From: SAR202 cluster bacterium Io17-Chloro-G4 | GTDB taxonomy: Bacteria > Chloroflexota > Dehalococcoidia > Lucifugimonadales > UBA3495 | NCBI GenBank assembly: GCA_002816455.1 | Contig: MUCR01000067.1 | Coordinates: 1 to 35,422 of the forward strand | DNA length: 35,422 nt | Direction: 5' to 3' | In this document: piece after piece, positions 11,332 through 29,714 of the stretch | How positions within the stretch are numbered: the stretch's first letter is position 1 | Layout: every line of letters starts with the position of its first letter | Program-made: the position numbers and the translations under genes | Notes under the pieces: model-generated | Told to the model about the DNA's origin: nothing | The model's input: only the letters and a program-made list of their open reading frames with translations | Database searches by the model: none

Positions 11332-12477
11332 CTATCCTCGGGGCCAGGGATATACCAAATTACCTTGGGCTTGCTCGGGAGGCCACAGCGCCACTTTCTT
11401 GCCATCTTGCCATTGCACTAGAAGAGTGGAGCGACCGACCTGCTTTCCCGTATCCGGATCAATCTTAAAACGGCCGTAGAACGTGGAAATATCCAGATCC
11501 GACGCTGCCTTCCGCAACTCTGCATCTTCCAAGCTGCCAGCCTGCTCGAGGCACGCCTGAGCCACCAATCCGGCGGCATAGGCTTGCACCATAGGGTAAT
11601 CCACTATTCCAGTACTTTGGCGGCGCAACGAAGCCATCACAGAGTCAGCCGTCTGCCCGTAGTCATTTGGGTAGTTCGCTTCCGGTTCCCATTGGCTGGG
11701 GCCGGTGAATCCCTGAACGTGTTCGCCAAGAGCATCACGGAACTGCTGAATAGGCGCTGCCACCACTGCCACCGCCTTAATTTCAATGGGATGGGACACA
11801 AGCTGCTTGGCCAACTGTATATCGTTGGCGATCCGCCCTACAGCTACCAAAACGTCCAGCCGCTCGTCGCGCACTTCTTCCAATATTTCGTTGAAATCCT
11901 TCAGCTCTGCTGGAAACTCTCGCAAGTATTGCACTCGAAAGCCCAGCCCTTTGGCCTGCTCGCTCACCGTCTCGCTCACTGACTTGGGGAAGCCGCCTGG
12001 AAATGCGCGGATGATGCCGATCTTGGAAGCTGAAGAGTCAGCTTGGCGGACCAATGGGAGCAGTCCAGCTAGGTAGCCGCTGGCGGGGGTCAAGACTCCG
12101 ACGATCCACCTGAAGCCTTGCTGGTAAATGTTGTCGGCCGCCCCTCCCTGGTTCCAAAACACCCGTTGATATTCCTCTGCCACACCGGCCGCCGCCAAAG
12201 AAAGCACGCTGGAATAAGGTCCAAAGAGGAGGTCGACGCAATCCTGCTCGATCAAACGGGAAGTTGCTTGGCGGGTACAGTCGGGTTTGCTCTGGTCATC
12301 GTAGTGGATAACGGCGACCGGCCAACGTTTTCCAGGCCCATCGACGATTAACCCGCCGGAGCGGTTGGCGTCCTCGGCCCAGGCTTGCAGCCCAACTAAA
12401 GCCTGCTTCCCCTGAACGCTGAACTGTCCTGTCAGGGATGCAGGAATGCCCGCTTTAATTGTCCGGGCTGTGGGCAT
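11332..12477 (-). CDS. Leu/Ile/Val-binding-protein-like protein without signal peptide
   Basis: The 381-residue protein has the type I periplasmic-binding fold of branched-chain amino acid or amide ABC substrate-binding proteins. Recognisable parts are IKAGIPASLTGQFSVQGKQA at the start, WAEDANRSGG near 35, and FGPYSSVLSLAAAGVAEEYQ near 86. Late segments such as STFYGRFKIDPDTGKQVG are also typical. Unlike exported members it starts directly with the first beta strand: there is no hydrophobic signal or lipobox before residue 8, and no permease or ATPase gene is nearby. A cytoplasmic sensor of the AmiC kind is therefore possible. It lies 44 bases after the FIST gene on the same strand. The ATG at 12477 lacks a strong ribosome binding site. 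Confidence 0.8.
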   Translation of the reverse strand: MPTARTIKAGIPASLTGQFSVQGKQALVGLQAWAEDANRSGGLIVDGPGKRWPVAVIHYDDQSKPDCTRQATSRLIEQDCVDLLFGPYSSVLSLAAAGVAEEYQRVFWNQGGAADNIYQQGFRWIVGVLTPASGYLAGLLPLVRQADSSASKIGIIRAFPGGFPKSVSETVSEQAKGLGFRVQYLREFPAELKDFNEILEEVRDERLDVLVAVGRIANDIQLAKQLVSHPIEIKAVAVVAAPIQQFRDALGEHVQGFTGPSQWEPEANYPNDYGQTADSVMASLRRQSTGIVDYPMVQAYAAGLVAQACLEQAGSLEDAELRKAASDLDISTFYGRFKIDPDTGKQVGRSTLLVQWQDGKKVALWPPEQAQGNLVYPWPRG

Positions 12478-12521
12478 AAAACTGACTTACGTTGACTTCA
12501 AGTTGGGAAATTTGGTGAAGG

Positions 12522-13706
12522 CTAATACCGGGGCCGAAAAATCCCGAAGGAACTTGTGTAGCCGTGGAGGAAAGTGGTCCCGCTGACCGGCCCGATTTCC
12601 CCATTACAGAAAAAGCCGCCCAAAGGTACTTGGCCTAACTTCTCATGGAAGATATCAGTGTCGTGATTGGGCCGGCCGTAGAGGTATTGTCCCCGGCCCA
12701 GGCAGGAAAACAAGAGGGCGCCCTGGACCTGATTCTCCCGGTTGTCCGTGGCGAAGCGCTCCAAAACCGCAGTCAGGTCCTCGGCAGACGTGTCTGCGTC
12801 CCGCAGGTGGAACTGGACCATCTGGCCCTCTTTTAAGGTTTCTCCGATGGCTAATGTCCCGGTTCTGGCATCCATGCCAACGACGTTTCGGATCAAGAAA
12901 TCACCTTGCTTGGGTGATTCCAGAAACTCATCCATTACCACGCCCAAGAAAAGGGAATTTTGCATCAACGCCTGGTCTCGTTCGTTCATTGTTTGGAATA
13001 ACTCTTTCAGAACTACCAAAGGAGCCTGTCCGTCAAGCCCCAATAGCAGGTTTTGCCGGCTCTCCGTAATATGCATAGTTTGGCCAATGGGACGGCACCC
13101 TTGCGCCACCACGGTGTCCACGGTGATGTTTCCATGCAGGGCTAGACCGATTGCCCCTGAATTGTGCGTCTGATCTCCCAAGAACAGGGCATTGCCTCCC
13201 TGAGAACTGGCCCCGCTGGCTAAGCCGCCAATTTTGGCCGACTGGGAATAGGCAAAGTCCAGACCCATCAACAGGTTCTGAACCGGAAAGGAAAATGGGT
13301 CGGCCAGTACCACGAACTGGGGCTCTTGGCTGCTGGGTACTCCCAGCAACTCCTCCCAAGAATTCGGCCCGGCGTCCAGATCAGGAAGGCTGTCACCGCT
13401 CAGGTGAAATGGGACGATTTCAACCCCTGGAAGACTAGCGCCAGTGATGGATATTCCGGGGCGTTGCTCCACTTCCACGCCGTCTCCGATTATCCCGCCG
13501 CCGGAGCAACCAAATATCTTGACAGGTCCCAGTCCCTGGCCAATTAGCTCGACTACTTGGTCATACTCCGATTCAAAATGCGGAGAAACGAATACGACGG
13601 CCAGATCCGGCTGGGTATCTCCCAAGCTGGATTTCAGACCGGTGATGCACTCGTCAATGGCTGGTGCCAGGTTCGGAAGCTCGGAAACCGAGGACGCCCA
13701 TTTCAT
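12522..13706 (-). CDS. FIST-domain sensory protein
   Basis: The 394-residue product matches the FIST N plus FIST C architecture, a predicted small-ligand sensing module. The N-terminal part contains LAVVFVSPHFESEYDQVVEL and IFGCSGGGIIGDGVE, the typical glycine-rich segment. The C-terminal part has FLGVVMDE, NVVGMDARTGTLAIGE and ALLFSCLGRG, then GFFCNGEIGPVSGTTFLHGYT at the end. There is no signal peptide, kinase, GGDEF or methyl-accepting output domain, so it would act through a partner. I prefer ATG at 13706, which has GAGAGG nine bases upstream; the frame is open 15 codons further. It is followed by the binding-protein-like gene, probably in one transcript. Confidence 0.85.
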   Translation of the reverse strand: MKWASSVSELPNLAPAIDECITGLKSSLGDTQPDLAVVFVSPHFESEYDQVVELIGQGLGPVKIFGCSGGGIIGDGVEVEQRPGISITGASLPGVEIVPFHLSGDSLPDLDAGPNSWEELLGVPSSQEPQFVVLADPFSFPVQNLLMGLDFAYSQSAKIGGLASGASSQGGNALFLGDQTHNSGAIGLALHGNITVDTVVAQGCRPIGQTMHITESRQNLLLGLDGQAPLVVLKELFQTMNERDQALMQNSLFLGVVMDEFLESPKQGDFLIRNVVGMDARTGTLAIGETLKEGQMVQFHLRDADTSAEDLTAVLERFATDNRENQVQGALLFSCLGRGQYLYGRPNHDTDIFHEKLGQVPLGGFFCNGEIGPVSGTTFLHGYTSSFGIFRPRY

Positions 13707-13795
13707 GTCGCCTACCTCTCGTCTGGTATCGCTCGCAACGTGACGCCACATACGCGGGTTGGGAAACTGCTACCCAGTATACCAAACCTGAAACA

Positions 13796-15223
13796 CTAAT
13801 CGAGGGCTATTAGCAAATCTGGAGACTTAATTAGCGCCAAAGCCAGTTCGGCGGCGTCGCCCAAGAGTCCGGGTCTAACGAATTCCAACCTGTCGGAGGA
13901 TGTGTGTATCCGCGAGAAATCCGGAGCGTAAAACATCAAAACAGGTATGCCTACTCGAGAGAAGTTAATGTGGTCGCTGCCGCCGCCCTGAAGCCCGCCG
14001 CCAGCCCGCACACTTATTCCCACCTTATCCGCCTGCTCTAGGGCCAAGTTGATCAGTTCAACGTCTCCAAGGACGCCTGCTTGACGTCCCGACCCCAAGG
14101 CGTCGAAGTTAAACATGGCGATGATGCCTTGTTGTTCCTCATCACTCAATGACTCGACGTAATGCTGACTACCCAAGAGGCCCAGTTCCTCCGAACCGAA
14201 TGCAATGAACCGCACCGTAAACGGCAGTGTATCTTGGGCTAATTCTTGGGCCAGGGCGAGAACAACTGCCGTGCCGGAGGAATTGTCGTTGGCGCCCGCG
14301 ACGTTGGGCACGGTATCGTAATGCCCTCCCAAAACCACAGACTTGTTTCCTGTAGCGCTACCTGAGCCCGGCTTCGTCGCTACAACGTTGTGGGACGTTT
14401 CGACAGTCGCTTTGACCGAGACGCTGGCCGTTACCGCGCCAGATTCCAACAACGCCTCGATTCTTTCACCGTCTCCTTGAGATATGGCCAGGGCAGGGAT
14501 GGCTGCCGAACGGGGCATCACGCCCTGGAAATTGTCCGGGATATTGTTGTATATCACTGCGGCAATGGCGCCAGCTGCGGCTGCCCGGTCCACCTTTTCC
14601 TGAAACGGAATGAGACCTCGCTGGATCAAGGCAACCTTTCCGGTTAGACCTTCCAGAGGAAAATCCCCCTCTCTGGCCAAACCGATGGCGACCAAACCGC
14701 CCGAGGCCTCTCCTTCCGGTGAAGATATCAACGGAATCACGGCCAGGCTCTGTGGTTCAAGGCCATCAATAGTGAGGGATGATAGCTCGGGGGACAGGTT
14801 GGTTATCGTGAAAGGCTGCAGCTCCACCGAGTACCCAAGGCCTTCTAGTTGGGATGCCAGGTATTCAGCGGCAGCCAATTCTTGCTCGGTCGCGCTCTCT
14901 CTGGGCCCCAACTCCTCCACCAAGAACTTGAGGTAGCCAAATGCCGTCTCCGCTAATGGGCTGAGAGGCGCCGGGGTAGCAGTGGGTCCGGGTTCGGTTG
15001 TCCGTGGTGGAAGCGTCGCTTCGGCGGTAGCCGTAGGCAGGATCGGCGTAGGGGACGGAGGCGGTGCTGTGGGACTCACTGTCGGGATTGGTATCGCCGT
15101 GGCGGGGACCGGGGTAGGGGTTGAGCCGGAGCAAGCTGCCACAAATAATACGATGGTCGATATTAAGAGCGCCGAAGCCCGCCGGCGGCTAATAAACGTT
15201 GAACACAATCTAAAGATGCTCAC
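13796..15223 (-). CDS. M28-family aminopeptidase, lipoprotein with PA domain
   Basis: This 475-residue protein is an exported zinc peptidase anchored by lipid. The signal peptide runs to the lipobox VAAC at about residue 31, followed by a Thr/Pro-rich linker of about 60 residues. A PA domain lies near 150-280. The M28 domain follows with metal ligands GGHYDTV (His, Asp), AGANDNSSG (bridging Asp), GSEELGLLG (catalytic Glu and metal Glu), FNFDALGSG and GSDHINF (final His). All key residues are present. The start is GTG at 15223, just after an AAAAAAGAG stretch. It probably trims peptides outside the membrane to supply amino acids. An extended -10 promoter sits at 15301-15309. Confidence 0.9.
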   Translation of the reverse strand: MSIFRLCSTFISRRRASALLISTIVLFVAACSGSTPTPVPATAIPIPTVSPTAPPPSPTPILPTATAEATLPPRTTEPGPTATPAPLSPLAETAFGYLKFLVEELGPRESATEQELAAAEYLASQLEGLGYSVELQPFTITNLSPELSSLTIDGLEPQSLAVIPLISSPEGEASGGLVAIGLAREGDFPLEGLTGKVALIQRGLIPFQEKVDRAAAAGAIAAVIYNNIPDNFQGVMPRSAAIPALAISQGDGERIEALLESGAVTASVSVKATVETSHNVVATKPGSGSATGNKSVVLGGHYDTVPNVAGANDNSSGTAVVLALAQELAQDTLPFTVRFIAFGSEELGLLGSQHYVESLSDEEQQGIIAMFNFDALGSGRQAGVLGDVELINLALEQADKVGISVRAGGGLQGGGSDHINFSRVGIPVLMFYAPDFSRIHTSSDRLEFVRPGLLGDAAELALALIKSPDLLIALD

Positions 15224-15419: not shown

Positions 15420-15460
15420 GATGCGCAATCGAATGAGTTGGATGCAAATAGGTGCGGGAA

Positions 15461-15640
15461 ATGAATATTGACGAAGAACGGGTCCGGCAACTGGCCGAAT
15501 TGGCCGGGATTAGCGTGGCTGATGAGGACCTATCGGAAGTGGCGAACCGGTTTGCCAGCCTAATGGGCGAGTTGGAACGGCTCAAGGAGTTGGACCTTTC
15601 CGATGTGCAACCCGTGGTGATTTTCCCCGAAGAACCGTAG
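15461..15640 (+). CDS. Small GatC/AtzG-like protein
   Basis: This 59-residue protein resembles the N-terminal helical part of GatC, the small subunit of the tRNA amidotransferase: INIDEERV-like opening, LAELAGISVADEDLSEVANRF and a helix LMGELERLKELDLSDVQP. It ends where full GatC (about 95 residues) would go on. There is no gatB in the window and an amidase gene follows at once. This pairing matches AtzG-AtzE type systems, where a vestigial GatC-like peptide stabilises a catabolic amidase. I prefer ATG at 15461, with AGGTG six bases upstream, over the GTG at 15452. Role in tRNA charging is unlikely but not excluded. Confidence 0.75.
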   Translation: MNIDEERVRQLAELAGISVADEDLSEVANRFASLMGELERLKELDLSDVQPVVIFPEEP

Positions 15641-15708
15641 GCGTCCCGGAGCACTTAATCCACCATGTGATTCCCACGCGCCAGAAACCCTATCAGAGAG
15701 GTAATGAT

Positions 15709-17136
15709 TTGGCCGCCGAAAATATAGTCATGATGTCAGCGATGGATACCGCTTCAGCCATCAAGGCCAAGGAATTTTCGCCTCTGGAAGCAGTGCGGGC
15801 TTACTTGGACCGAATCGAACGGCTTGACTCGCAGCTGTCCGCCTACATTACCGTCTGCCACGAAGAGGCGCTGGTCGCCGCCGAGCAAGCGTTACAAGCC
15901 TTGGCCAGAGGCGACCAACTTGGGCCGTTATTCGGCGTCCCGATAGCAATAAAAGACCAGTTTTGGACCGCCGGAATCCTCACCACCAACGGGTCTAGGG
16001 TGTACCAGGATTTTGTGCCCGATGAAGATTCCACCGTTGTCTCCAGGCTCAAGCAGGCTGGAGGCATACTCTTGGGGAAGCTGAATCTGAGCGAGTTGGC
16101 CATGGGAGGAACCCAAGACCCGCCATGGGGCATTCCGGGGAACCCTTGGGACCTGGAACGGACCCCCGGGGAGTCCAGCAGCGGGTCGGGCGTGGCCTTG
16201 GCCGCCCATCTGTGCGCCGCCTCGATTGGGGAAGACACCGGCGGTTCGGGGCGCGGCCCAGCGGCATACTGCGGCGTGGTGGGGATGCGGCCAACGTTCA
16301 CCAGGGTCAGCCGCTACGGTATGACTCCCATGTGCTGGTTCATGGACGCAGCCGCACCCATGACCAAGACAGTGCAAGATTGCGCCCTGATGCTGGGGGC
16401 AATTGCTGGCTACGACCCGAAGGACCCATTTACCAGCAGGAAACCCGTGCCCGATTACACTTCTGGCCTGGACCGGGGCGTAAATGGCTTGCGGGTGGGC
16501 TTGATTAAAGAGCTGCACGAAAGCGGAGATATGCACCCCGAGGTAAAACAAGCGATGGAACAGTCGCTGGAGATTTTCCAGGAGCAAGGCGCCGTAATCC
16601 AGGAAGTGTCGATACCTTTGATCCCATTTGCCGGGGCGATTTTCGTGGGAATCGCCGACACCGAGGGGGCTGGCGCTCGTGATGAGATACTGCGCGAGCA
16701 ACCGGAGAACCTGGACCGGGCCAGCAGGACTCGGCTGCAGTCGGCGGCCTTGGTCCCCGCCAAAGTCTATAATCGGGCGGCCAAAGCCAGGGTTCTACTC
16801 AGGCGGCAATTTATGGAGGCGCTGAACCAAGTGGATATCATGGTTTCTCCCACCTCGCCCTATCCGGCGCCCAAACATGTAGACTTGACGGCGGTGTTTC
16901 AGACCGCTGAAGACGTGCGCTCCCGGTTTTTCTTCCGCCGCTCCTACACCGGCTGCTACGCCCTAACGGCTTTACCGGCGATTTCCATACCCGGTGGGTT
17001 TACCTCGGATAACCTGCCCATCGGCCTACAATTGGGTGCCAGGCCATTCGCGGAGGACACACTCTTCCGGGCTGCCTACGCCTTCGAGCAAGCAACAGCC
17101 TGGCATTCCAGGGTCGCTCCCTTTGATGTCCAGTAG
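15709..17136 (+). CDS. Amidase signature family hydrolase
   Basis: The 475-residue enzyme is an amidase-signature hydrolase with an intact Ser-cisSer-Lys triad: Lys82 (AIKDQF), Ser156 (PGESSSGSG) and Ser180 (EDTGGSGRGPA). It hydrolyses C-N amide bonds in the cytoplasm. I chose TTG at 15709 because GAGAGG lies seven bases before it and the N-terminus then aligns residue for residue with the second amidase at 28299; the frame is open back to a GTG at 15667. The C-terminal FTSDNLPIGLQLGARPFAED is standard. The preceding GatC/AtzG-like gene is a likely partner. Substrate is unknown; AtzE, GatA-like and indoleacetamide-type activities are all possible. Confidence 0.9.
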   Translation: MAAENIVMMSAMDTASAIKAKEFSPLEAVRAYLDRIERLDSQLSAYITVCHEEALVAAEQALQALARGDQLGPLFGVPIAIKDQFWTAGILTTNGSRVYQDFVPDEDSTVVSRLKQAGGILLGKLNLSELAMGGTQDPPWGIPGNPWDLERTPGESSSGSGVALAAHLCAASIGEDTGGSGRGPAAYCGVVGMRPTFTRVSRYGMTPMCWFMDAAAPMTKTVQDCALMLGAIAGYDPKDPFTSRKPVPDYTSGLDRGVNGLRVGLIKELHESGDMHPEVKQAMEQSLEIFQEQGAVIQEVSIPLIPFAGAIFVGIADTEGAGARDEILREQPENLDRASRTRLQSAALVPAKVYNRAAKARVLLRRQFMEALNQVDIMVSPTSPYPAPKHVDLTAVFQTAEDVRSRFFFRRSYTGCYALTALPAISIPGGFTSDNLPIGLQLGARPFAEDTLFRAAYAFEQATAWHSRVAPFDVQ

Positions 17137-17156: not shown

Positions 17157-17645
17157 GTGGAAGATATTTTTGACACTGTGCTGGTACGTGCGGCAGGCAT
17201 CTCGGCGGGCCATCCCCTTGCCGGTGTTCTTTCTGGGCGAAGCAACATCATCGAGCTTACAGAGAAGTCCCACGCCGCCGCCCTCAAACCGGAGCCGTCG
17301 GGTGGGCTCACCCATTCTCAACGGGCCGCTTTAGCCTGCCGCATGGCACGGTTGAACCAAGAAGTTGAGCTGGCTTACCACTACGAAAGCATGGTTGAAA
17401 CGGTGGATGTATCCATCGCCGACCCCAGATTTGACGGCGCTGATAATCCCCGGCTCAAGACTATTATTCGGCACACCGACCTGGTCACCCGCAGTCCGAA
17501 AGACGCCGGCGAAGACGATATTAGGGCGCTAGAATCGGCCGGAATCCCTGTTGAGGATATCGTCCGGCTCTCTGAGCTTATCGCCTTTGTAAACTACCAA
17601 GTCAGGGTAGCCGCCGGTCTTCGGCTGATGGCTGCCGTCTCATGA
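17157..17645 (+). CDS. CMD-like protein (Avi_7170 type)
   Basis: This 162-residue protein resembles the first of a conserved pair of carboxymuconolactone decarboxylase/AhpD-like proteins (the Avi_7170 family) that usually precede an alkylhydroperoxidase-domain partner. The middle part SQRAALACRMARLNQEVELAYHYE has the AhpD-like helix, but the redox CxxC is missing, only one Cys being present. The C-terminus DIVRLSELIAFVNYQVRVAAGLRLM matches the AhpD fold. The start is taken as GTG at 17157, with no ribosome binding site. The stop overlaps the next start by 4 bases, so the pair is coupled. It may be a structural or regulatory partner of the CxxC protein. Confidence 0.75.
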   Translation: MEDIFDTVLVRAAGISAGHPLAGVLSGRSNIIELTEKSHAAALKPEPSGGLTHSQRAALACRMARLNQEVELAYHYESMVETVDVSIADPRFDGADNPRLKTIIRHTDLVTRSPKDAGEDDIRALESAGIPVEDIVRLSELIAFVNYQVRVAAGLRLMAAVS

Positions 17646-18223
17646 GCGAGCCGATAAAAGAATTTACAACGGCTATACCCTTCTGGAGTCCCCGGGTTAC
17701 CCCAGTGGAATTGGACCAAGCGTCCGAAGAACAACTGGACGCCATGAAGGTCACGCCTTCCGACACCGGTGTTTCCGAGTACGTTTTGGTGCTGGCCCAC
17801 GACCCAAAAACCCTGAAAGAGAGGACTCCCCTTTTTAATGGCATCATGTACAGCAGAGGCGGATTATCCCGGCCGGAGACGGAACTGGGCGCCGTGGCCG
17901 CCTCAGTGGTCAACCGGTGCATCTACTGTGCAGCGGTCCACGCCAGCCGGTACAACGAACTCACCGACGACGAATCCGTTATGGAGGCCGTCTTCAGCAG
18001 AGGCGCAGACGCCGAGCTGGACCCTCGTCAATCGGCCATCCTAAATTTCGCCACCAAGCTTTCCAAATGCCCGTCAGAGGCGGACAAGGCCGACATGAAC
18101 CTGCTCAAGGAAAACGGGCTGGAGATGGACGAAATTTTGGACTTGGTCCTATCAACGTCCCTGTTCGGCTGGGCCAACCGGCTTATGCACGTCTTGGGCG
18201 ACCCGCTACCGCGGGAGGCATGA
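17642..18223 (+). CDS. Alkylhydroperoxidase-domain protein (Avi_7169 type)
   Basis: The 193-residue product carries the AhpD/CMD active-site pattern in NRCIYCAAVH: Cys93, Cys96 and His100 (CxxC-x3-H). In the family these cysteines reduce peroxides or take part in thiol chemistry. The flanks ETELGAVAASVVNR and LFGWANRLMHVLGDP match the second member of the Avi_7169/Avi_7170 pair. The ATG overlaps the upstream stop by 4 bases. These pairs are often next to hydrolases, oxygenases or transport genes of unknown pathways; here an amidase is upstream. Function beyond a thiol-redox role is not known. Confidence 0.82.
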   Translation: MSEPIKEFTTAIPFWSPRVTPVELDQASEEQLDAMKVTPSDTGVSEYVLVLAHDPKTLKERTPLFNGIMYSRGGLSRPETELGAVAASVVNRCIYCAAVHASRYNELTDDESVMEAVFSRGADAELDPRQSAILNFATKLSKCPSEADKADMNLLKENGLEMDEILDLVLSTSLFGWANRLMHVLGDPLPREA

Positions 18224-28106: not shown

Positions 28107-28134
28107 GTAGGGGCGGTTCGCGAACCGCCCTTAC
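28107..28134. repeat. GGGCGGTTCGCGAACCGCCC palindrome
   Basis: A 20-base perfect palindrome (28111-28130) extends to a 14-bp stem with one wobble. It lies in the 272-base spacer between the divergent VOC and amidase genes. Such GGTTCGCGAACC palindromes are often dispersed repeats; an operator is also possible. I see no clear promoter beside it. Confidence 0.75.
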
Positions 28135-28298: not shown

Positions 28299-29714
28299 AT
28301 GGACAAGCAAGAGATTCCCTTCCTCTCCGCCTCCCAACTCTCCCAATTAATCGCCTCCAAAGAGATTTCGCCGGTTGAGGCCACGGAAGCGTATCTGGAC
28401 CGAATTGATCAGTTGGACGGTAAGCTAAACTCCTACATCACCGTTACCAGGGATCAGGCTTTGGCGTCCGCCATAGAGGCCGAGAGTGCAATAGCGTCGG
28501 GCGGATACCTCGGGCCGATGCACGGTCTCCCTGTTGCGATAAAGGACCAGTTCAACACCGCCGGAATCCTCACCACCGGTGGCTCTCAAATTCTGGCCGA
28601 GAACGTACCCGATGATGACGCAACGGTGGTCGCCAACTTAAAAAAGTCCGGGGCGGTGCTGTTGGGCAAGTTGAACATGAGCGAATTCGCCATGGCCGAG
28701 ATATACGACCACCCCTTCGGCACTCCTCGGAACCCATGGAACTTGGAGCGAAACCCGGGCACCTCCAGCAGCGGCTCTGGCGCAGCCACAGCCGCATTTT
28801 TGTGCGCCACATCCTTGGGGGAAGATACCGGCGGCTCTATACGGGGCCCCGCCAACAACAGCGGACTTGTGGGACTGCGGCCTACCTGGGGCAGGGTCAG
28901 CCGCCATGGCGTGCTGGGCGGTTCCTGGTCCATGGACACGGTGGGCCCTATTTCCAGGTCCGTGGAGGATGCGGCGATCACCATCCAAGCCATAGCGGGA
29001 TATGACCCCAAAGACCCTTACACCTGGGACGTGCCGGTACCGGACTATAGCAAAGCTTTGGACGGGAACATTTCGGGCATGAAAATTGGAGTGATCAAGG
29101 AGAAAGCGAATTCTCCAATTTTGGACGCAGAAGTTCGCAAGGCCTTCACCACCGCTGTAGATGTACTGGGCGAGTTGGGAGCCCAGTCCCAAGAAGTTTC
29201 CTTGCCGTTGACCGAGCAAGCTGGGTTCATCTCCATGGTGCTGATTTTTGTGGAGTGGGCCTCAGTGCACCGCAGCACTTTCGAGCCCAATCTGCAGCAA
29301 ATGGACCACAACAACCGGTACCGGTTCCTCACCGGCGCCGTTATTCCTGGCCAGGCCTACTTCAAGGCTCAAAAGCTGCGGGCATTATTGAGGCAGCAGA
29401 TATTGGACGCCCTCGAACAGGTTGACGTGCTTGTTTTGCCTGGAAGCCATGTGACCGCCAGGCCTGTAGAGAGCGAGCCCGGATTGCAGAGCAAAGAGCA
29501 GATAGCCGCCGGAATGGCCGGCCGCATCAGCTTCACGGGTCCTTTCAACCTGGCCGGGACGCCAGCGCTGACGCTGCCCTGCGGATTCAGCTCGGACAAC
29601 ATGCCCATCGGACTTCAAATAGTGGGCAAGCCCTTCGCCGAAGAAACGGTTTTGAAGGTAGCCCACGCCTACGAGCAAAACACCGAGTGGCACACCAAAA
29701 GGCCGCCAATTTAA
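28299..29714 (+). CDS. Amidase signature family hydrolase, second copy
   Basis: The 471-residue enzyme is a paralogue of the amidase at 15709. Its triad is at identical positions, Lys82 (AIKDQF), Ser156 (PGTSSSGSG) and Ser180 (EDTGGSIRGPA), and many blocks match word for word (AGILTT, EAYLDRI, CGFSSDNMPIGLQ). AAGGAG lies five bases before ATG 28299. Unlike the first copy, it has no GatC/AtzG-like gene next to it. Its neighbours are a nitroreductase 46 bases downstream and a VOC protein diverging upstream. Substrate is unknown. Confidence 0.92.
   Translation: MDKQEIPFLSASQLSQLIASKEISPVEATEAYLDRIDQLDGKLNSYITVTRDQALASAIEAESAIASGGYLGPMHGLPVAIKDQFNTAGILTTGGSQILAENVPDDDATVVANLKKSGAVLLGKLNMSEFAMAEIYDHPFGTPRNPWNLERNPGTSSSGSGAATAAFLCATSLGEDTGGSIRGPANNSGLVGLRPTWGRVSRHGVLGGSWSMDTVGPISRSVEDAAITIQAIAGYDPKDPYTWDVPVPDYSKALDGNISGMKIGVIKEKANSPILDAEVRKAFTTAVDVLGELGAQSQEVSLPLTEQAGFISMVLIFVEWASVHRSTFEPNLQQMDHNNRYRFLTGAVIPGQAYFKAQKLRALLRQQILDALEQVDVLVLPGSHVTARPVESEPGLQSKEQIAAGMAGRISFTGPFNLAGTPALTLPCGFSSDNMPIGLQIVGKPFAEETVLKVAHAYEQNTEWHTKRPPI

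What the first reader, a model, noticed from the sequence alone, without database searches (positions are those of the whole stretch)
15461..17136. AtzG-like mini-GatC beside an amidase
A 59-residue protein matching only the N-terminal part of GatC precedes an amidase, with no gatB nearby. This mirrors AtzG-AtzE, where a vestigial GatC-like peptide stabilises a catabolic amidase. The second amidase in the window (28299) has the same triad spacing but no small partner, so the two offer a natural comparison of partner-dependent and free forms.
Basis: partly seen in the sequence, partly recalled or inferred. Interest (0 to 1): 0.5.

Follow-up and report, generated by a model that had tools for sequence, protein, structure and literature searches.

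The report
Truncated GatC partner of an amidase
A Chloroflexota-type bacterial genome carries a 59-residue gene, a copy of only the front half of a protein-synthesis subunit, directly before an amidase gene; it most likely makes a small helper subunit for that enzyme, and similar gene pairs turn up in related and in some unrelated bacteria.

Summary
ORF 15461-15640 (59 aa) matches only GatC positions 1-50 of 93; an intact amidase starts 68 bases later. The pair is conserved: 23 of 26 amidases in the window's clade have the mini-GatC; of the rest, one is at a contig end, one has an assembly gap, one has a transposase-like ORF upstream. In 56 of 56 collected minis the protein ends 8-20 residues after the conserved EP position (own GatC: 46), and minis and amidases are inherited together. 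Five of 11 non-GatA amidase loci of this genome have such a partner; the window's second amidase (28299) does not. By sequence it is neither AtzG (PF13318) nor AtzE, but has that architecture: most likely a GatC-derived small subunit that binds and stabilises the amidase (inferred; no complex shown). New here: a lineage without a Pfam-level annotation, multi-copy in this genome, and a small ORF with a good profile match beside 7 of 16 inspected plasmid amidases, a weak one beside 4 more. Substrate unknown.

The parts
15461..15640 (+). mini-GatC, 59 aa: two predicted helices, then DLxxVxPVxIFP and stop; lacks the tail of GatC
   Evidence: helices from the model of the L049 relative
15450..15454 (+). 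AGGTG, possible ribosome-binding site of the mini gene (alternative start GTG 15452)
   Evidence: read from sequence; inference
15709..17136 (+). amidase (amidase-signature family), 475 aa from TTG 15709; the ORF is open from GTG 15667
   Evidence: PF01425 E 2.2e-108; start by comparison with L047
15696..15701 (+). GAGAGG, likely ribosome-binding site of the amidase
   Evidence: read from sequence; inference
15952..15954 (+). amidase Lys82, predicted catalytic lysine
   Evidence: alignment with own GatA; family triad recalled
16174..16176 (+). amidase Ser156, predicted cis-serine
   Evidence: alignment with own GatA; family triad recalled
16246..16248 (+). amidase Ser180, predicted nucleophile
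   Evidence: alignment with own GatA; family triad recalled
28299..29714 (+). second amidase, 46.9% identical to the first, no adjacent mini-GatC (comparison case)

Best explanation
The two genes encode a small-subunit/amidase pair. The 59-residue protein keeps the two helices and the short segment after them by which GatC holds GatA, and lacks the tail that reaches over to GatB. It most likely binds the amidase as GatC binds GatA and AtzG binds AtzE, making it soluble or correctly folded, perhaps in a heterotetramer, while the amidase hydrolyses a small amide, probably to release nitrogen. Shown here: both genes, their conservation as a unit, consistent truncation, joint inheritance, intact catalytic positions, a separate full-length gatC with gatA and gatB. 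Inferred: binding, stabilisation, stoichiometry, catabolic role. Substrate: not determined.
For: GatC N-terminal match only; the mini profile hits solved GatC chains 3h0l_C, 4wj3_C and 2df4_C within residues 1-60. Full-length gatC with gatA, and gatB, elsewhere. In the window clade 23 of 26 rows have the mini. Toxin-antitoxin-like genes separate the pair in several relatives, yet both members are there. Mini and amidase distances correlate: r 0.91 over 55 pairs (maximum of 2000 permutations 0.22) and 0.68 over 12 divergent representatives, 0 of 5000 permutations as high. In 56 of 56 minis the end lies 8-20 residues after the column of the conserved Pro (53 of 56 have Pro there), against 46 in own GatC. 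Passages of PMC4027206: conserved Leu/Phe of the two GatC-type helices pack on GatA, the following loop and tail cross to GatB, and GatA is unstable without its small subunit. Passages of PMC6219798: AtzE is not soluble without AtzG, with which it forms an obligate heterotetramer.
Against: No complex was shown: the predicted fused pair gave pLDDT 86-90 for residues 1-50 of the mini, but coordinates and inter-chain error were not available and parts of the amidase core scored below 50. In 30 of 80 related loci the matched amidase has no adjacent mini (L055 set aside), so amidases of this group can exist without one beside them. The passage also says that the helices of the yeast homologue touch GatB as well as GatA, so loss of the tail does not by itself prove freedom from GatB. 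AtzG itself, as a single sequence, matches the mini profile only weakly (hhalign probability 7.8). Substrate and catabolic role rest on context.
Confidence: 0.76

Rival explanations
1. The mini is a second or alternative GatC that serves the tRNA-dependent amidotransferase.
For: It matches gatC; the helices of a GatC homologue contact GatB as well as GatA (passage of PMC4027206).
Against: A full-length gatC sits beside gatA on another contig; own gatC has the tail with LRDDV, the Arg-Asp motif that contacts GatB (passages of PMC4027206), and the mini does not. In the loci examined the mini lies beside a non-GatA amidase.
Confidence: 0.04
2. The mini is a decaying gatC fragment or leader ORF with no protein function.
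For: Short, below the gatC cut-offs of both libraries.
Against: dN/dS about 0.03 against the nearest relative (dS saturated), conserved motif and similar end point in the collected minis, joint inheritance across divergent pairs.
Confidence: 0.05
3. The mini does not stabilise the amidase but regulates it or tethers it to another partner (for example a peptidase).
For: An S9 prolyl oligopeptidase-family gene (Pfam on the L067 copy, the others by clustering) lies upstream on the same strand in 13 of the 26 loci compared (L059-L071); an M28 peptidase, a FIST protein and a Peripla_BP_6 protein lie on the other strand in the window.
Against: Neighbours vary between lineages while the pair is constant.
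Confidence: 0.12

Closest known systems
AtzG-AtzE (1-carboxybiuret hydrolase, Pseudomonas sp. ADP; PDB 6c62, 6c6g)
   Same: A 60-70 aa protein directly upstream of an amidase-signature enzyme, no gatB beside it; AtzG is 68 aa; 6c62_A is among the structure matches of the amidase part.
   Different: AtzG matches PF13318, the mini does not; amidases 30.9% identical; one clade with AtzE rejected, p-AU 0.015; no AtzD, AtzH or AtzF among the neighbours that were identified.
GatC-GatA of GatCAB (PDB 3h0l, 2df4, 4wj3)
   Same: The mini profile aligns to GatC within residues 1-60; GatA is the best PDB match of the amidase profile (4wj3_A).
   Different: No tail; amidase under the gatA cut-off (316.7 against 481.1 bits); GatA is its own clade and one clade of the window lineage with GatA is rejected, p-AU 0.003.
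HpxX (NCBIfam NF033624), AtzG-like
   Same: AtzG matches it at E 2.3e-4, below its cut-off; that HpxX lies beside an amidase is recalled.
   Different: The window mini, three own-genome paralogues, three plasmid small proteins and the L057 mini gave no match to it at E <= 1.
'AtzG-like protein' of Roseomonas marmotae plasmid p1318-3 (L154)
   Same: So annotated, directly before an amidase; matches the SAR202-set mini profile with hhalign probability 89.
   Different: Its amidase groups with other plasmid amidases, not with the window lineage.

Membership tests
AtzG-like (PF13318) | Pfam profile match over 24 bits | tested here: not met
   No match at E <= 1 for the window mini; AtzG control 36.2 bits
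AtzE (TIGR02715) | score over 425.75 bits | tested here: not met
   285.1 bits
AtzG-AtzE | small GatC-like ORF directly upstream of an amidase, no gatB beside it | tested here: met
AtzG-AtzE | small protein forms an obligate complex with the amidase | not testable with these tools
   fused model without coordinates
AtzG-AtzE | atzD, atzH, atzF neighbours and 1-carboxybiuret as substrate | tested here: inconclusive
   Adjacent genes identified: two CMD/AhpD-like, an alpha/beta hydrolase, Gfo/Idh, M28 peptidase, FIST, Peripla_BP_6; the other window genes were not searched; substrate not testable
GatC (TIGR00135) | match over 47.1 bits | tested here: not met
   29.7 bits, positions 1-50 of 93
GatA (TIGR00132) | score over 481.1 bits | tested here: not met
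   316.7 bits
Amidase signature (PF01425) | profile match and Lys-Ser-Ser positions | tested here: met
   363.6 bits; K82, S156, S180 by alignment with own GatA, triad recalled

The most novel reading that the evidence does not exclude
A two-helix GatC-like subunit is not a relic of the transamidosome but an old, widespread and largely unannotated partner of GatA-type amidases; transamidosome GatC would be the elaborated form that later gained its GatB-binding tail, and AtzG one diverged case. In this reading partner-bearing amidases lie on several sides of GatA in the tree because the partner is ancestral and has been lost many times.
Probability: 0.25. Interest if true: 0.7.

Novelty: new variant of a known kind. 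Interest (0 to 1): 0.48.

Why it matters
Amidases of this family are usually treated as single-chain enzymes (general knowledge). If a fraction of them need a 60-residue partner that is annotated 'hypothetical' or not listed at all (L149 and L159 list no small gene there, in a gene table that is itself incomplete), then failed expressions and missing activities may have a simple cause, and the origin of GatC in tRNA-dependent amidation becomes testable by comparing partner-bearing and partner-free paralogues in one genome, such as 15709 and 28299 here.

Tried and rejected
Full GatC split by a frameshift: rejected, since the collected minis from many genomes end at about the same place. 'Only gatC and gatA of the genome': rejected. 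Hidden minis before the partner-free amidases: a second profile from 56 minis found none in the loci scanned; L055 proved to be an assembly gap that starts inside a likely mini, and L050 has a transposase-like ORF upstream, split over two frames (IS5-like is a reading from recall, not a search). Phylum survey with the mini profile at E <= 1e-6: matches in 7 of 251 genomes; one of them (L142) is a full-length GatC, not a mini. gatC survey of 88 order genomes: 84 with a match, 79 with one over the cut-off; short sub-cut-off matches like the window's are few with that model, so it is a poor detector of minis. A gatA search at E <= 1e-200 returned nothing in 25 genomes because the threshold was too strict; GatAs were taken beside gatC instead. 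A first alignment for folding misplaced the minis and was replaced. Folding of the pair gave no coordinates, so no interface could be measured. In the structure comparison the mini part was barely covered; only Arabidopsis FAAH rows start inside it (first aligned model residue 10-20), while GatA rows begin at 79-86; ranges only, so no conclusion. A substrate could not be read from the neighbours, which vary. Plasmid searches with single small proteins found few relatives, so profile comparison was used. Paper searches: AtzG/AtzE/GatC, SAR202 with amidase (57), GatC-like with amidase (58), AtzG (61), DUF4089 (62), GatC with amidase, small subunit and operon (108), HpxX/HpxY (109); their listings showed no report of GatC-like amidase partners in SAR202. 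Only passages of three papers were seen. The library lacks most subscription journals and the original AtzEG paper is not held. Rows dropped before counts: two amidase fragments (one in L082, one at G000:C6:586-1677) from the tree, two amidases 1.46-1.49 kb behind a mini that precedes another amidase (in L114, L124) relabelled as partner-free, and the partial L099 pair.

Full report
WHAT IS THERE. The ORF at 15461-15640 encodes 59 residues and is followed on the same strand by an amidase ORF open from 15667 to 17136. The likely amidase start is TTG 15709: the nearest relative (L047, 91% identical) has ATG at this place, and GAGAGG ends 7 bases upstream (read). The small protein matches the first 50 of 93 positions of gatC (E 5.8e-7, under the family's cut-off). 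Pfam's GatC gives only E 0.032 and AtzG-like (PF13318) is not listed at E <= 1. The amidase matches PF01425 at E 2.2e-108, with Lys82, Ser156 and Ser180 aligned to the corresponding positions of the genome's own GatA (the family's triad is recalled). The second amidase at 28299 aligns to the first without relative gaps from Lys to Ser to Ser and has no mini upstream.

THE GENOME. The window is a contig of a 1.92 Mb draft, 71% complete. It holds a full-length gatC next to gatA on another contig (G000:C62) and a gatB (G000:C13). So the mini is not the cell's only GatC. Besides gatA there are 11 amidase loci (the two pieces at C6:586-1677 counted as one); five of the 11 have a mini-like ORF upstream on the same strand, at most 205 bases from the amidase domain: C67 (the window), C1, C65, C6:29838 and C61, with profile E-values from 6e-32 to 8e-6. 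Six do not. The four paralogous minis give no GatC or AtzG-like match in Pfam at E <= 10.

CONSERVATION. A search with the 59 residues found 24 further matches at E <= 1.7e-14 in relatives (147 genomes). For the 30 loci kept from that call, an amidase follows the mini on the same strand in 28. A scan of named genome contigs with an amidase alignment gave the best 80 of 170 loci: 79 Dehalococcoidia, Chloroflexi/Chloroflexota or SAR202 draft genomes by title and one Tectomicrobia. For the matched amidase, 46 of 80 have a mini upstream (within 1.8 kb, E <= 1e-3), 3 have too little upstream sequence, 1 (L055) has an assembly gap beginning inside a likely mini, and 30 have none. In an amidase tree of 117 rows, the window's clade of 26 has 23 with the mini; the others are L058 (contig edge), L055 (gap) and L050, where a transposase-like ORF split over two frames lies upstream. 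Across the whole tree the label needs 15 changes, against a mean of 39 in shuffles, so it is clustered but has been gained or lost repeatedly.

ONE UNIT. In 56 of 56 collected minis the protein ends 8-20 residues after the column of the conserved Pro (Pro in 53 of 56, Glu before it in 42); own GatC runs on for 46, with its LRDDV motif starting about 12 residues after that column. Five of the minis (14-20 residues) thus reach as far as that motif's place, but none runs to the end of GatC. Distances among minis follow those among their amidases: r 0.91 over 55 pairs (maximum of 2000 permutations 0.22), and 0.68 over 12 representatives whose amidases differ at more than 40% of positions, with 0 of 5000 permutations as high (the partial L099 pair was dropped before this count). 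Against L047 the mini has dN 0.072 and dS 2.28, the amidase 0.053 and 1.53 (dS is saturated, so only the direction counts). In several relatives a nucleotidyltransferase and its substrate-binding protein (PF01909, PF08780; L036 copies searched) or a HicB-like antitoxin gene (PF15919; L032 copy searched) lie between mini and amidase, and both members of the pair are there.

MECHANISM. In yeast GatFAB and bacterial GatCAB the two GatC-type helices contact GatA and GatB; their conserved Leu/Phe pack on GatA, while the following loop and tail cross to GatB, with an Arg and an Asp of bacterial GatC contacting it; GatA is unstable without its small subunit (passages of PMC4027206). The mini keeps the helices and lacks the tail; own gatC has both. 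The mini profile matches solved GatC chains within residues 1-60. [quoted passage not shown] length). By analogy the mini binds and stabilises the amidase. A predicted fusion of the L049 pair gave two confident helices for the mini (6-15 and 22-44; pLDDT 86-90 over residues 1-50) and an amidase part that matches GatA and AtzE structures; the mini's docking could not be measured, and parts of the amidase core were below pLDDT 50. Binding and stabilisation are therefore inferred.

FUNCTION. Neighbours vary: next to the window pair are two carboxymuconolactone-decarboxylase-type genes, an alpha/beta hydrolase and a Gfo/Idh oxidoreductase, and on the other strand an M28 peptidase, a FIST protein and a Peripla_BP_6 protein. 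In 13 of 26 compared loci (L059-L071) an S9 prolyl oligopeptidase-family gene lies upstream on the same strand (Pfam on the L067 copy, the others by clustering). By clustering, the FIST gene recurs in 6 of the 26 and a relative of the Peripla_BP_6 gene in 4. This fits use of amides or peptides as nitrogen source, as one SAR202 paper says of amidase and related genes (passage of PMC11994032), but shows no substrate.

RELATION TO KNOWN SYSTEMS. The architecture is that of AtzG-AtzE. By sequence the mini is not in PF13318, while AtzG is; the amidase is under the AtzE and GatA cut-offs. In a tree of 58 amidases, GatA forms one clade (100), and the window lineage lies in a clade of 23 rows from the set and this genome (97) apart from GatA and AtzE; joining the window lineage with AtzE or with GatA is rejected (p-AU 0.015 and 0.003; AtzE is a long branch, the tree is a quick one, and the tested groups were chosen after seeing it). 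So it works like AtzG-AtzE, as far as architecture tells, but is not filed as a member.

BREADTH. Sixteen plasmid amidases, four from the best rows and twelve from the 24 spread rows (94 records), were inspected; they were not drawn at random. Eleven have a small ORF adjoining the amidase, ten upstream and one (L153) downstream; L155, L158, L160, L161 and L164 have none. Compared with the profile of the 56 minis, L149, L150, L152 and L159 scored jointly as one alignment get probability 94, L157 91, L154 89, L153 89; the four others are weak (L162 with L163 15, L156 3, L151 1.5). Ten shuffles of one of these proteins reached at most 0.5. Among all 668 ORFs of 35 codons or more in the 16 loci, the eleven adjoining ORFs hold eleven of the fourteen best places for that profile, though only three of them have E below 0.01. 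In the tree L153 was labelled as having no partner, since its downstream ORF was found later. Partner-bearing amidases thus lie on several sides of GatA. The tree is unrooted, so it cannot tell repeated gain from an old partner often lost; the second is the novel reading.

VERDICT. The finding is real, and the gene pair is under selection as a unit. Its kind is known; I found no report of this lineage, of its copy number in such genomes or of its relatives among unannotated plasmid ORFs in the paper searches listed under Tried and rejected, which cover open-licence papers only.

Noticed in passing
L027, L029, L031, L032, L033, L036, L037, L038, L040, between mini and amidase: Toxin-antitoxin-like genes (nucleotidyltransferase plus substrate-binding protein, or HicB-like) lie between mini and amidase; L036 and L032 copies confirmed by Pfam, the others read by eye.
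   Followed up: partly
L083, L086, L090, L096, L099: Relatives of the window's second amidase (28299) stand head-to-head with a mini gene on the other strand, in four of the five followed by its own amidase; the partner might be shared.
   Followed up: no
L151:290-580 (Rhodococcus pyridinivorans plasmid pPE111): A 97-aa hypothetical protein with a weak GatC match (E 0.013) precedes an amidase next to a nitrile hydratase beta gene.
   Followed up: no
L153:1931-2125 (Aminobacter aminovorans plasmid pAA02): A mini-GatC-like protein is encoded directly downstream of its amidase instead of upstream, with overlapping ends.
   Followed up: partly
window 11332-15223: Peripla_BP_6 and FIST-type genes and an M28 peptidase run divergently from the pair; by clustering the FIST gene recurs beside 6 of 26 compared loci.
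   Followed up: partly
window 17157-18223: Two adjoining CMD/AhpD-type proteins related to TIGR04029 and TIGR04030 (both below those cut-offs) start 20 bases after the amidase; of the 27 loci compared only L047 shows them.
   Followed up: no
window 28110-28131: Palindromic element GGGGCGGTTCGCGAACCGCCC upstream of the second amidase, at one place in the window.
   Followed up: no
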